The translations under genes were made by a program, and so were the position numbers. Positions 29,902 to 56,734 of a stretch of DNA of 64,000 nucleotides are shown one piece after another; the stretch's first letter is position 1; each line of letters starts with the position of its first letter. Source of the stretch: Alphaproteobacteria bacterium GM202ARS2 (lineage in GTDB: Bacteria; Pseudomonadota; Alphaproteobacteria; GM7ARS4); contig JACONH010000005.1 in assembly GCA_014323835.1 (NCBI GenBank), positions 1-64,000 of the forward strand, given 5' to 3'. The notes under the pieces are model-generated. The model did not search any database. It saw nothing but the letters and a program-made list of their open reading frames with translations, and was not told the origin of the DNA.

Positions 29902-29979
29902 TTAGACTTCAGCGCAGGCATAGCTGTTGATTTCCAGACCAACAGACACTTCCGCGACTTTCGGTGTGTTCCATGCCAT
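29902..29979 (-). CDS. pqqA: PQQ precursor peptide PqqA
   Basis: A 25-residue peptide that begins MAWNTPKVAEV and ends with the EINSY core. Glu16 and Tyr20, the two residues joined by PqqE and processed to pyrroloquinoline quinone, are present in the E-x3-Y spacing, and the N-terminus matches the acetic-acid bacteria type I recall. AGGAGG lies 10 bases before the ATG. Upstream in frame the reading continues for 40 codons, but the internal start is the classical one. A strong terminator follows immediately, so no pqqB-E genes are co-transcribed, and none are in the window. Confidence 0.9.
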   Translation of the reverse strand: MAWNTPKVAEVSVGLEINSYACAEV

Positions 29980-30165: not shown

Positions 30166-33100
30166 CTATGAAAAATATGTATCAATATGTTTTTTAATTT
30201 GCTGTTCCAACTCTGCGTCTTCGAATGTTTCGATAAGACAGCCTGTAAAGTGCTTGTTATACCATTCTGTTGCCTCATTGCGATAGTCCTGATAAGCAGA
30301 TGAATCTGTTAACCAGTGCTCCCAATAAAATGTTTTTCCTTGCGAATAAATCGTGAAGTTAGGAAGTGATACCGTGCCGTCCGGTGCTTTCAGCAGTTTT
30401 TCATAATAGAAGGGAATATTTTGCTTTTGTAGGTGTTCGACAATCATAAGCTCCGACTTCGAACGCACCATATATTTGCCTAAATTCTCATGTATCTTAC
30501 CTTCTTCGTCCCGTCCTACACGGTTGACGAGTTCATCTGGCACAGGCTGAAACAAACCATGAAACAATGATGAGTTAACATAACTCGTTTGCTTGTTTTC
30601 TAGACGTTGAGCCGATAAAATCGTTGATACATCCCCTTGAATAAAAAGCGTGCAGTGATTCTGCGCTCGAGTTAACGCTGTATAGAGCAGCTCTGAGGAT
30701 AATGAAAAATCTTCAGATTGCGGCATAATGACATAAGTATTCTCAAACTCACTACCCTGTGCTTTATGGATAGAAATTGCGTAAGCCAATTCGAGATTAT
30801 CCTCTACTTTTTCAGAGTATCCGTTACCAATGTTTCCATATCCAACAACCAGATTTTTTCTATTCTCAAAGGACACTTGAAAGCGTTTTAGTCGATAGTA
30901 GCCTTTATCAAAGTTATGCTTGTTAGCAAAGCCTATCTCACCATTAAATAGTTCTAAGGGTTCTGGCTTCCTCGTATCAAAATTGTATGCGCCAATCATA
31001 TTTGACTGTGGTCTATTTTTAATTTGAATAACTTTATCACAAAGCGTGATGCCCCCCAACGTGCCATACCTTTCTATCAGAGTAGACGATAGATACTTTT
31101 GCACTTTATCGTTTAGAGCCTCAACGCCGTGAAGTTTGCCGCGATGGGGCGTGAGAATTTGATATTTATGTGCTTGCCAAGCAAAAGCAGCACGCCACAG
31201 TTCATAAGGCTTATTTTGATTAAGTAGCTCGCCGGTATGCTCTTGCATATCCTCCTCTATGGCTGAAAGAAGTATTTCGCCTAAATTCTCAGGTTCATCC
31301 CAATAAATAATCTTCATATCCTCATCTACGACATCACCTTTATGAATTTGAGATAAAAACTTCTTGTCTTCTGATAGCTTTGATTGCCCATTACTACGAG
31401 CATCTTTACCGATGAACATGTTAGCCAATCGCAGAATAGCTGTGCCTTTCTTCTCAACTTTGTTCTCTAGTTGCCTCATATTCCCCGTCAAATAGCCAAT
31501 ATTCTCTGGCTTTTTTTTATCAAGCCAGTCGATGACATCAGAAAAAATCTTTCCTCGCCCAATTGGTGGCAATTGATTCGGATCACCTATCAAAATGAAA
31601 CGCTTAATCTGGTTCCACTCTAAAGCACGAGCAAGACATGCCATAAGATGAATATCAAGCATGGATGCTTCGTCAACAATTATCGTGCCTGTTCCCCCCC
31701 TTTTGCCACCTGCACGCTTAAATGTAAGATTGTCATATAACCAACCATGACGAGCCAAAAAAGAATGGACTGTGGACGTACGAACTTTCTGGATACCTTG
31801 CTCTCTTAGCTTGTCTCGAATTCGAACCGACGCTTTACCGGTTGGTGCTAAAATATCAAGAGGAGCATTCTCTCCTTCAGTTTGGCGCACAGCACGAACA
31901 ATTGAACAAATAACCGACGTTTTTCCTGTCCCCGCGTGTCCTGTTATGACAGAGAACGGTTTTTGAAATACTTTCTCACCAACTTTTGCCTGCTCTTTTA
32001 CATATTTGGTATATTCCTCACGTGCTACTGCCAGAAGACGACTTTCCGTATCGAGAATCTCACTGCACCAATTCTCAAAAGAAAAAGGGCGGGTGAGTGA
32101 GATATCTGCACGGCCAGCGAGTTTGGTTAGTGCTTCTTCTACTGTCCGTTCATCCTCATGAACATGTTTCAAGTAAAGCCAAAGGTCATCACCTTCCTTG
32201 CGTAATATCAAGCCGTCTTCCAATGTTTCATAATCCACATCAAAATAACGTTGCGTAAATTCAACCGACCTCCAATCGGGAAGTCTTTTCATTTTTTCAT
32301 CAATTTTCTCTAAAATAAGAGACGCAGAAGAAAAAATTTGATTTGATTCTTTTCGCAGTTGTTCGATACACAGTGCTCTAAAACGACGAGAGTCGTTACG
32401 TTCCATGCCAGCGAGTGGTGTACTACCAAGTTCTTGCGAGGGCAAAACGCCACGATCGACAGTGTTCCATGAAATAATATCATCGGCACTATCGCCAACG
32501 TAGTTTTCGCATAACACATAAGGGTTGTGGACAAAAAGCTTTAGGTCTATGGGTAGTCCGTGCTCCTTGCGCACATCCTCTTTATCATTAACAATATGTC
32601 CTATTTGTTTCTCTTCAAGATCAAGTCTTGGAATTATAGTGCGTAATAATTCTTGCGCGTCCTTAGACCTTAACCGCCACTGTCGCGCTATTTTTTGCAA
32701 CGCATGACCTGTCAAATTCAATTCGGGTGTATCGTCACCTTTATCCAAAGCATTGAAAAACAATCGGTGTGCTTCTTTTGAATTGTTTTCACCTATGAAT
32801 TTGTGAGCAGAGAAAATGACTGTCTCATCAACTTCCAAATATTTCATAACATTCGCGAGACTAGGGTAAAGCCCTCTTTTTTTCCAAAGTTCGTTAATAC
32901 AGCCGAGTATCCATTGCTCCTTTTCATGCCAATTTTCACTTTCATCTTCCATCTCTTGAAGCTCGTGAATCGAATTGAGGAATTGCTCTAACAAGCCAAT
33001 AGCAGCATCATCGGTTATCAACTTTGAACCATATTTACAAACTTGCGGATTTTCTGGAAAAACAGCAAAACGCTGCATAGCTTCAAAGTTATCGATGTAG

Positions 33101-33747
33101 TTATGGTAGGGGAGTCGCAAACCCTGATTAGGATAATGAGAGCCGACATTACGTGCCCATACCATACCATCAGCATATCTTTCTCGAGCAAAATCATCTG
33201 CTCCTTCATAGCTGATTCGTTCACCTACTTCTTTAATCTTGGATACCCCTATAAAAACATAACATTGTTTATCATCCTCAGAAAAAGGATTGGCATAATT
33301 GGCATGATAAAATATTAGACTTTTATCCTTCTCAATCTGATTAAAGAAATCTTCAGCGTTTCTTCGGCGAAGATTATTTTCCAGATAACCATTTTTGTCG
33401 TACATAAGCCCATAAGGCCACGCGCATACCGTAGCTTGCGGTATATTCCATTCCACTCGTCTTGCTCGATTTCTCCAAAAATCAGGTGGCTCTGAAAAAC
33501 CTTTAATTTGTTGCAAACCAAAAGCATTGACACTGTAGATACATGGTGGCAAATCCGCACCATCCAGCTGTGCAATTGGTTTGCCGGCATTTTCTTGCTC
33601 GCGGCGAAGATTGCGGTTACGAGCAATTATGTCGCCAGGGTGTGAACTCCTACCAACACAATACGTGTTGCACTCGGGTTTTTGGCAAATATGACCATTC
33701 CAACCATCGTTGTGCCAAGCAAGACGGGCTGTTAAGTGGTGCGACAT
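30166..33747 (-). CDS. large RecD2-like helicase with C-terminal nuclease-type domain
   Basis: A 1193-residue protein, much longer than RecD2 (about 720-800). The N-terminal 580 residues match no family I can name; they contain a Cys cluster CQKPECNTYC (21-30). The SF1B helicase core follows: Walker A GHAGTGKTS (603-611), Walker B VDEAS (691-695), GDPNQLPPIG (721-730), then a C-terminal motif V-type SIHKAQGSEFENTYVI (near 1000) and motif VI ELLYTALTRAQ. The last 95 residues, with RSKSELMIVEHLQKQNIPFYYEKLL and FTIYSQGKTFYWEH, resemble a PD-(D/E)xK nuclease. GC content is visibly lower than that of the neighbours. It is probably an acquired anti-phage or DNA-processing gene; no partner gene is adjacent. 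Confidence 0.8.
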   Translation of the reverse strand: MSHHLTARLAWHNDGWNGHICQKPECNTYCVGRSSHPGDIIARNRNLRREQENAGKPIAQLDGADLPPCIYSVNAFGLQQIKGFSEPPDFWRNRARRVEWNIPQATVCAWPYGLMYDKNGYLENNLRRRNAEDFFNQIEKDKSLIFYHANYANPFSEDDKQCYVFIGVSKIKEVGERISYEGADDFARERYADGMVWARNVGSHYPNQGLRLPYHNYIDNFEAMQRFAVFPENPQVCKYGSKLITDDAAIGLLEQFLNSIHELQEMEDESENWHEKEQWILGCINELWKKRGLYPSLANVMKYLEVDETVIFSAHKFIGENNSKEAHRLFFNALDKGDDTPELNLTGHALQKIARQWRLRSKDAQELLRTIIPRLDLEEKQIGHIVNDKEDVRKEHGLPIDLKLFVHNPYVLCENYVGDSADDIISWNTVDRGVLPSQELGSTPLAGMERNDSRRFRALCIEQLRKESNQIFSSASLILEKIDEKMKRLPDWRSVEFTQRYFDVDYETLEDGLILRKEGDDLWLYLKHVHEDERTVEEALTKLAGRADISLTRPFSFENWCSEILDTESRLLAVAREEYTKYVKEQAKVGEKVFQKPFSVITGHAGTGKTSVICSIVRAVRQTEGENAPLDILAPTGKASVRIRDKLREQGIQKVRTSTVHSFLARHGWLYDNLTFKRAGGKRGGTGTIIVDEASMLDIHLMACLARALEWNQIKRFILIGDPNQLPPIGRGKIFSDVIDWLDKKKPENIGYLTGNMRQLENKVEKKGTAILRLANMFIGKDARSNGQSKLSEDKKFLSQIHKGDVVDEDMKIIYWDEPENLGEILLSAIEEDMQEHTGELLNQNKPYELWRAAFAWQAHKYQILTPHRGKLHGVEALNDKVQKYLSSTLIERYGTLGGITLCDKVIQIKNRPQSNMIGAYNFDTRKPEPLELFNGEIGFANKHNFDKGYYRLKRFQVSFENRKNLVVGYGNIGNGYSEKVEDNLELAYAISIHKAQGSEFENTYVIMPQSEDFSLSSELLYTALTRAQNHCTLFIQGDVSTILSAQRLENKQTSYVNSSLFHGLFQPVPDELVNRVGRDEEGKIHENLGKYMVRSKSELMIVEHLQKQNIPFYYEKLLKAPDGTVSLPNFTIYSQGKTFYWEHWLTDSSAYQDYRNEATEWYNKHFTGCLIETFEDAELEQQIKKHIDTYFS

Positions 33748-33783
33748 ATCAGAAATATCAGTAATTCATAAGGATAAAATCCG

Positions 33784-33841
33784 TTTATCCATATTGATAT
33801 ATTTTTTGTCAAGATAATTTTAATTATCTAATATTATTAGA
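33784..33841 (-). promoter_or_regulatory. promoter with two palindromes upstream of helicase gene
   Basis: The minus strand reads TTGACA (33812-33807), 17 bases, GATAAA (33789-33784). Just upstream of the -35 box lie two overlapping perfect palindromes, GATAATT-TT-AATTATC (33813-33828) and TCTAATA-T-TATTAGA (33827-33841). These could be operator sites for an unseen regulator. Confidence 0.6.
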
Positions 33842-33856
33842 TTTTTATTTACAATG

Positions 33857-33929
33857 CGTCCCCTAGGGGATTCGAACCCCTGTCGCCGCCGTGAGAGGGC
33901 GGTGTCCTAGGCCTCTAGACGAAGGGGAC
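33857..33929 (-). tRNA. tRNA-Glu (CTC)
   Basis: Acceptor GTCCCCT/AGGGGAC, anticodon stem CCGCC/GGCGG, loop CTCTCAC with anticodon CTC. CCA is not encoded. It separates the low-GC helicase gene from the parS array. tRNA genes are common integration sites, but I see no duplicated 3' end nearby. Confidence 0.93.
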
Positions 33930-34007
33930 AGACAACACCCTCAACCCATAAACCCATAGCCAAAATCGCGCAAGCACCCACCACACAAAAAAAACAAAAA
34001 TTCGAAT

Positions 34008-34275
34008 TGTTTCACGAGAAACATTCGACTCCCACCCACACAATTGTTTCACGTGAAACATCGACACAAAAAACCAAAATAAAAATTGTTTCACGTGAAA
34101 CATTCGACCCCCAACCACACAATTGTTTCACGGGAAACATCGATACAAAAAACCAAAATAAAAATTGTTTCACGTGAAACATTCGACCCCCACCCACACA
34201 ATTGTTTCGCGGGAAACATCGATACAAAAAACCAAAATAAAAATTGTTTCACGTGAAACATCGACACGTGAAACA
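34008..34275. repeat. parS array (seven sites plus half site)
   Basis: Sites matching TGTTTCACGTGAAACA at 34045, 34087, 34166 and 34245 (perfect), 34008 and 34124 (one change), 34203 (two changes), and a half site ending at 34275. Starts alternate 37 and 42 bases apart, so the array is a 79-base unit repeated. This is the ParB-binding centromere of the chromosome; parA/parB are not in the window. Confidence 0.92.
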
Positions 34276-34294
34276 AAGCGACACATAAACAAAG

Positions 34295-56615: not shown

Positions 56616-56734
56616 CAACGGGAAACAGTCAAAAAAACACATCAATTGTTTCACGGGAAGTAGTCGATTCGAACACACAAATTGTTTCACGGGAAACAGT
56701 CGAAAAAAACACATCAATTGTTTCACGTGAAACA
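56616..56734. repeat. second parS cluster
   Basis: TGTTTCACGTGAAACA at 56719-56734 (perfect), one-mismatch site at 56683-56698, a degenerate site at 56647-56662 and a half site near 56616-56627, spaced 36 bases apart. They lie between convergent SoxYZ-like and DUF4175 genes, preceded by a C- and CCG-rich tract (56588-56618). Confidence 0.88.

What the first reader, a model, noticed from the sequence alone, without database searches (positions are those of the whole stretch)
30166..33747. Large helicase-nuclease fusion with an unknown 580-residue N-terminus
Seen: RecD2-like helicase motifs at 603-1040, a C-terminal segment resembling PD-(D/E)xK nucleases, and a long N-terminal region with a CQKPECNTYC cluster. 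The gene is AT-richer than its surroundings and has a promoter with two palindromes. Known: single-gene helicase-nuclease defences exist (for example Nhi and Hhe), but their domain order differs from this one. Inference: a candidate one-gene anti-phage system next to a tRNA and the centromere.
Basis: partly seen in the sequence, partly recalled or inferred. Interest (0 to 1): 0.72.

Follow-up and report, generated by a model that had tools for sequence, protein, structure and literature searches.

The report
Base-reader helicase with a dead nuclease
This large bacterial gene belongs to an already catalogued but untested anti-virus candidate family (PDC-S68); its front end is probably a sensor of chemically modified DNA bases joined to a DNA-unwinding motor and a DNA-cutting end, but in this genome the cutting end has lost its key residues.

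Summary
The 1193-aa ORF is real and intact. It is not an unknown protein: it matches PADLOC candidate family PDC-S68 over its full length (1528 bits). No paper in the library mentions PDC-S68. Residues 359-1065 have the RecD2 fold (3gp8, Z 28.8), so the unexplained N-terminus is about 1-358. Folded alone, residues 1-300 match almost only EVE/YTH/ASCH/McrB-N domains (best Z 6.7), which sense modified bases; the match is consistent but modest. Residues 1095-1191 show PD-(D/E)xK topology. The family thus looks like reader + helicase + nuclease in one chain. Of 22 relatives, 16 lie near restriction-modification, Argonaute, Dnd, Druantia-like or other defence-like genes (13 without three weak Tiamat-like cases). 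The window copy departs: catalytic Asp1130 is Asn, the Gly after WEH-x is deleted, Lys1159 is Ala, all otherwise invariant, and its nuclease evolved twice as fast as the rest of the gene (0 of 160 resamplings). It is most likely restriction-dead. It sits in a tRNA-Glu/pqqA interval where the only held relative carries a methyltransferase-like gene. In passing: the genome holds 78 perfect parS sites; 288 other genomes of the class hold at most 18.

The parts
30166..33747 (-). PDC-S68 gene, 1193 aa, intact reading frame
   Evidence: PADLOC PDLC05066, E=0, 1528 bits, residues 1-1190 to model 1-1199/1202; 19 relatives of 38-48% identity in genome contigs, 58.5% in a Paracoccus plasmid
32953..33747 (-). 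N-terminal domain, about residues 1-265: predicted EVE/YTH-like (PUA superfamily) modified-base reader
   Evidence: model of 1-300, pLDDT 84.1; Foldseek top hits McrB N-terminal domain 6p0g/6p0f and EVE protein 2hd9, E 0.1-0.2; VIA list almost wholly YTH/EVE/ASCH/McrB-N/VcaM4I, Z 6.7 down to 3.4, unrelated rows at 2.8 or less
30553..32673 (-). RecD2-like region, residues 359-1065 (HhH-type N part plus SF1B helicase core; Walker A at 603-610)
   Evidence: 3gp8 RecD2-DNA complex Z 28.8, 519 aligned, rmsd 4.5; AAA_19/AAA_30/UvrD_C_2; RecD2 TIGR01448 224 bits, below the cut-off of 500
30175..30465 (-). PD-(D/E)xK-type nuclease domain, residues 1095-1191, degenerate in this copy
   Evidence: helix-strand-strand-strand-helix-strand-helix in the model; RSKSE...PDF...WEHxG...K conserved in all relatives that reach it, incl. 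24-28% identical ones
30358..30360 (-). codon AAC = Asn1130 where every relative has Asp (PDF motif)
   Evidence: alignments
30310..30315 (-). in-frame loss of the invariant Gly after WEH-x (between residues 1145 and 1146)
   Evidence: alignments
30271..30273 (-). Ala1159 where the Lys is invariant among the 19 full-length relatives and kept in the wider family
   Evidence: alignments
33772..33829 (-). promoter-like TTGACA-17-GATAAA (33812-33784) with inverted repeats AGATAATT-AA-AATTATCT (33829-33812) and GGATAAA-cggat-TTTATCC (33790-33772, overlapping the -10)
   Evidence: two repeats of this size in 3.6% of shuffles, so weak
33856..33929 (-). tRNA-Glu (CTC), upstream border of the variable interval, also in relative G001
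29902..29979 (-). pqqA (MAWNTPKVAEVSVGLEINSYACAEV), downstream border of the interval, also in G001

Best explanation
The gene is a member of PDC-S68, a horizontally spread family built as modified-base reader (EVE/YTH-like, N-terminal) + RecD2-type 5'-3' DNA helicase + PD-(D/E)xK nuclease in one chain. In logic this resembles McrBC but uses an SF1B helicase in place of the McrB GTPase. Shown by sequence or model: family membership, RecD2 fold, nuclease topology and motif, defence neighbourhood, loss of nuclease residues in this copy. The copy in this window keeps reader and motor motifs but has lost D1130, the Gly after WEH-x and K1159, with domain-specific acceleration, so it probably no longer cuts; it is a restriction-dead derivative, either decaying or acting by binding and unwinding alone.
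For: Full-length PDC-S68 match, 1528 bits. RecD2 fold 359-1065, Z 28.8. N-domain: Foldseek top McrB-N and EVE, VIA rows with Z>=3.4 almost all EVE/YTH/ASCH/McrB-N/VcaM4I; such domains are base-flipping modification sensors in restriction enzymes (PMC7897488; PMC7641849). Nuclease secondary structure and motif conserved across the family. Neighbours: type IIG/ISP, type I, type III RM, Argonaute, DndC/DndD, DruE, DrmD- and DpdE-like; control 1 of 55. Patchy: of 385 genomes sampled in the class, only the window's own and one distant member (28% identity) show a more than helicase-only match. Dead nuclease: 13 of 177 otherwise invariant columns changed, 4 of them in the nuclease; window branch takes 10.4% of tree length in the nuclease against 4.9-5.5% elsewhere, 0 of 160 resamplings.
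Against: The EVE/YTH match is structural only and modest (Z under 8; Foldseek E 0.1); no Pfam EVE/YTH/ASCH hit in any of 17 N-termini. No phage data exist. In the nuclease the usual Lys of the ExK motif is not at its usual place (WEHLG), so catalysis is inferred. The window gene itself has no defence neighbour. A full-length frame with intact ATPase motifs could mean that the protein still does something.
Confidence: 0.5

Rival explanations
1. The N-terminal domain reads the host's own modification (for example m6A laid by a neighbouring methyltransferase) as 'self' and holds the helicase-nuclease off; unmarked DNA is attacked. PDC-S68 would then be an accessory restriction subunit of RM- or DISARM-like systems.
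For: Methyltransferase-containing systems lie beside many copies: type ISP directly upstream in Paracoccus, type I RM in Bartonella, type III MTase in Hymenobacter, IIG in L003 and L012. YTH domains, which read m6A, head the VIA list and DrmA is in it.
Against: In several loci (L007, L008, L010) the neighbours that were scanned include no methyltransferase, and the window copy has none beside it; a reader that needs a partner should not be so promiscuous.
Confidence: 0.2
2. In this genome the gene is simply decaying: a horizontally acquired restriction factor on its way out, with no present function.
For: Three catalytic or structural nuclease positions lost; 13 of 177 otherwise invariant columns changed, more than in any other copy (maximum 7); terminal branch 2.5 times that of the Paracoccus sister over the whole gene; a related genome has a different gene in the same interval.
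Against: Uninterrupted 1193-codon frame, intact Walker A/B and other helicase motifs, promoter-like sequence; the excess change is in the nuclease, not spread evenly.
Confidence: 0.35
3. PDC-S68 is one subunit of a multi-gene, Druantia-like system (DruE + UvrD-like helicase + PDC-S68), and single copies are relics or use partners in trans.
For: In L007, L012, L017 and L019 a DruE-like gene, a UvrD-like gene of about 710 aa and PDC-S68 are consecutive, in hosts as distant as Epulonipiscium and Saprospiraceae; L018 has the UvrD gene with a Tiamat-like gene.
Against: 17 of 22 loci lack the UvrD partner as far as the contigs reach; order varies.
Confidence: 0.2
4. A housekeeping RecD2/RecD-type repair helicase with an extra nuclease.
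For: RecD2 fold; the genome shows no other RecD-like helicase match.
Against: RecD2 and RecD equivalog cut-offs not met; very patchy distribution; defence neighbours; presence on plasmids.
Confidence: 0.04

Closest known systems
PDC-S68 (PADLOC-DB phage defence candidate, single gene)
   Same: full-length sequence match, same length and architecture
RecD2 (Deinococcus radiodurans, 3gp8/3e1s)
   Same: fold of residues 359-1065, SF1B motifs
   Different: extra N-terminal domain of about 350 aa and C-terminal nuclease; below the RecD2 family cut-off
McrBC with EVE/YTH-type McrB (Thermococcus gammatolerans McrB N-domain 6p0g)
   Same: modified-base reader + NTP-driven DNA motor + PD-(D/E)xK nuclease logic; top Foldseek hit for the N-domain
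   Different: SF1B helicase in place of the McrB GTPase; one chain, no McrC; reader match weak
VcaM4I (EVE-HNH modification-dependent endonuclease, 6yex)
   Same: N-terminal EVE-type sensor fused to a nuclease; in the structural hit list (Z 5.5)
   Different: HNH nuclease, no helicase
Nhi, Gabija GajB, type IV CRISPR RecD
   Same: PADLOC matches restricted to the helicase core
   Different: no match outside the helicase

Membership tests
PADLOC PDC-S68 | full-length match to the family HMM | tested here: met
   1528 bits, residues 1-1190 on model 1-1199/1202
PADLOC PDC-S68 | embedded among defence genes | tested here: met
   16 of 22 relatives, 13 without the weak Tiamat-like cases; the window gene itself has none
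PADLOC PDC-S68 | anti-phage activity | not testable with these tools
   no paper in the library mentions PDC-S68; most PDCs unvalidated (PMC12988326)
RecD2 (TIGR01448) / RecD (TIGR01447) | score over the curated cut-off | tested here: not met
   224 of 500 bits and 203.8 of 310 bits
RecD2 fold | three-dimensional fold of the helicase region | tested here: met
   3gp8 Z 28.8 over 519 residues
EVE/YTH/ASCH (PUA superfamily) reader | fold of the N-terminal domain | tested here: inconclusive
   hit list almost uniformly this superfamily but Z at most 6.7 and Foldseek E 0.1
EVE/YTH/ASCH (PUA superfamily) reader | sequence match to a Pfam EVE/YTH/ASCH model | tested here: not met
   no such hit at E 0.1 in 17 N-termini
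PD-(D/E)xK nuclease (family as a whole) | alpha-beta-beta-beta-alpha-beta core with acidic motif residues | tested here: met
   topology in the model; E1099, D1130, E1143 invariant in relatives; the Lys of ExK is not at its usual place
PD-(D/E)xK nuclease (window copy) | catalytic Asp and associated residues present | tested here: not met
   D1130N, Gly deleted, K1159A
Nhi | full-length match | tested here: not met
   16.2 bits, residues 584-725 only
Type IV modification-dependent restriction (as a function) | cuts modified, spares unmodified DNA | not testable with these tools
   needs biochemistry

The most novel reading that the evidence does not exclude
PDC-S68 is a new architecture of modification-dependent restriction: an EVE/YTH-type base reader, a RecD2-type helicase and a PD-(D/E)xK nuclease in a single polypeptide. 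The window carries a naturally nuclease-dead version that may still protect by binding and unwinding marked phage DNA.
Probability: 0.3. Interest if true: 0.72.

Novelty: new variant of a known kind. Interest (0 to 1): 0.5.

Why it matters
PDC-S68 is a catalogued but functionally blank candidate. A reader-motor-nuclease reading turns it into a directly testable hypothesis (which base mark is read, and is it foe or self), and would add an SF1B-helicase-driven class to type IV-like restriction. A natural nuclease-dead copy is a ready-made comparison for the question whether reader plus motor suffices for protection. For the genome at hand it cautions against counting a PADLOC hit as an active defence system without checking catalytic residues.

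Tried and rejected
Integrative element at tRNA-Glu: the longest word shared by the two ends is 9 bp and no integrase lies beside the gene, so no attL/attR was found; neighbours are housekeeping genes. Solved-structure profile searches for the nuclease and for residues 1-575 gave nothing usable. Pfam on the nuclease alone: no nuclease family. Zn/Fe-S reading of CQKPECNTYC: only C21, C30 and C69 are invariant and this region is poorly modelled; left open. The inverted repeats near the promoter are expected in 3.6% of shuffles and were not pursued. Papers on PDC-S68: none.

Full report
What is there. The ORF at 30166-33747 (-) encodes 1193 residues from an ATG without interruption. It is AT-rich (41.0% GC; flanks about 54%) and is the only gene between tRNA-Glu (33856-33929) and a small pqqA gene (29902-29979), beyond which lies anmK. 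Motifs of an SF1B helicase are all present. The whole genome holds one copy and no other RecD-like match.

Already catalogued. PADLOC model PDLC05066 (PDC-S68) covers the whole protein with 1528 bits; two further PDC-S68 models give 636 and 580 bits; every other PADLOC match is to the helicase core only or to short pieces. RecD2 and RecD family cut-offs are not reached. PDCs are candidates found by guilt-by-embedding and mostly without experimental validation (PMC12988326). No paper in the library names PDC-S68. The finding is therefore not a new family.

Relatives. One scan of genome contigs gave 19 loci with 38-48% identity from many phyla; plasmids gave full-length relatives in Paracoccus (58.5%), Bartonella (48%) and Hymenobacter (42%) and distant ones at 24-25%. 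Of 385 genomes sampled across the class, only the window's own and one distant member (28%) showed more than helicase-type matches. The single other genome of the family/order that is held, G001, lacks it. The tree places the window copy with the Paracoccus and Bartonella plasmid copies. This is the pattern of a mobile accessory gene.

Neighbourhood. Immediate or near (within about 10 kb) neighbours include: type ISP/IIG RM (Paracoccus L021; L003; L012), type I RM (Bartonella L022; L009), type III RM (L010; Hymenobacter L023), Argonautes (L008; L009), DndC/DndD (L015), DpdE- and DrmD-like helicases (L013, L012, L023), Tiamat-like proteins (L002, L006, L018, weaker), and DruE of Druantia (L007, L012; L017, L019 by clustering with the L012 protein). 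That is 16 of 22 loci, 13 if the weak Tiamat-like cases are not counted; four of the six negative loci (L001, L005, L014, L016) are contigs under 8.3 kb. As a rough control, 1 of 55 other window proteins reaches the same threshold; it is a control for the library, not a matched genomic control. In L007, L012, L017 and L019 a DruE-like gene, a UvrD-like gene of about 710 aa and PDC-S68 are consecutive; L018 has the UvrD gene beside it.

The site. In G001, anmK and pyrF flank the same interval. There too the order is tRNA-Glu, one gene, pqqA, but the gene is a different one: a 339-aa protein with an NPPW motif and only a weak Eco57I-methylase match (E 0.02, below cut-off). So this interval has taken up different genes in the two genera. 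No direct repeats or integrase were found.

Fold. A full-length model from 17 sequences has mean pLDDT 79.5. Residues 359-1065 align with RecD2 bound to DNA (3gp8, Z 28.8, 519 residues, 4.5 A). This shortens the unknown N-terminus from 580 to about 358 residues. Modelled alone, residues 1-300 reach pLDDT 84.1. Foldseek's three best hits are the McrB N-terminal domain of Thermococcus gammatolerans (twice) and an archaeal EVE protein, all weak (E 0.1-0.2). The finer alignment lists YTH, EVE, ASCH, THYN1, McrB-N and the EVE endonuclease VcaM4I almost without exception from Z 6.7 down to 3.4, DrmA being the other entry, with unrelated folds at 2.8 or less. Z under 8 alone would not convince; the uniformity of the list does more. 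No Pfam model of these domains is hit. In restriction enzymes such domains flip out and sense modified bases (PMC7897488, PMC7641849), and the main text of the survey of EVE contexts does not contain the word RecD.

Nuclease and its loss. Residues 1097-1191 form helix, three strands, helix, strand, helix in the model, the PD-(D/E)xK core order. RSKSE, PDF, WEHxG and a later Lys are conserved in the relatives that reach this region, including the 24-28% identical ones apart from minor changes in the first motif. The window copy has PNF (a single-base change from an Asp codon, codon at 30358-30360), lacks the Gly after WEH-x through an in-frame deletion, and has Ala for the Lys (codon 30271-30273). 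It departs from 13 of 177 otherwise invariant columns, more than any other copy (maximum 7). Its terminal branch is about 2-2.5 times that of the Paracoccus sister in every other domain, but 4.5 times in the nuclease, and takes 10.4% of the total tree length there against 4.9-5.5% elsewhere; none of 160 resampled or contiguous 104-column sets from the rest of the protein reached that (mean 5.1%, sd 1.2%). Constraint has been lost mainly in the nuclease. With Walker A/B intact, the likely state is reader plus motor without cutting. Whether the protein still protects, or is early in decay, cannot be told from one genome.

How it most likely works (family). Reader binds a marked base; RecD2-type motor loads, translocates 5' to 3' and unwinds; nuclease cuts. 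The order of parts is shown; the ligand, the loading and the cutting are inferred. The main rival for the family is that the mark read is the host's own methylation, so that unmarked DNA is attacked; the main rival for this copy is decay.

Beyond the finding. The 'centromere' next door is an array of seven parS-like palindromes (34008-34260), but the same 16-mer occurs 78 times exactly in this 1.83 Mb assembly and about 137 times as the 15-mer with one mismatch allowed, on at least eleven contigs. The 288 other genomes of the class in that search hold at most 18, mostly 0-3. This deserves its own study.

Noticed in passing
window 34008-34260 and 56647-56734; genome G000 contigs C1-C8, C10-C12 and others: parS-like palindrome TGTTTCACGTGAAACA occurs 78 times exactly in a 1.83 Mb genome, in small arrays over many contigs (about 137 with one mismatch in the 15-mer); 288 other genomes of the class hold 0-18, mostly 0-3, and the nearest relative G001 holds 3. 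Bacterial parS sites are normally few and near the origin, so this looks like a genome-wide spread of ParB sites.
   Followed up: partly
window 29902-29979 (-); L047 7445-7525: pqqA (PQQ precursor peptide) stands alone in both genera next to anmK, while pqqE lies on another contig (G000:C6) or 230 kb away (G001:C1).
   Followed up: partly
L007, L012, L017, L019 (and L018): Recurring cluster of a DruE-like helicase, a UvrD-like helicase of about 710 aa and PDC-S68 in distant phyla; may be a multi-gene Druantia-like system.
   Followed up: partly
L047 6280-7299 (G001:C1): Relative G001 carries a methyltransferase-like gene (NPPW motif, weak Eco57I match) between tRNA-Glu and pqqA, exactly where the window has PDC-S68: a small exchange site.
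   Followed up: partly
L047 5260-6021 versus window 33930-34293: Between tRNA-Arg and tRNA-Glu G001 has a response-regulator-like gene; the window has the parS-like array instead.
   Followed up: no
L003 10001-13594: The PDC-S68 copy of an OMG-group MAG has an in-frame stop after 587 codons, another possibly broken copy.
   Followed up: no
L134 7911-11305 (Sphingomonas plasmid pC33): A distant PDC-S68 relative is split into two overlapping ORFs, N-terminal/helicase part and helicase/nuclease part.
   Followed up: no
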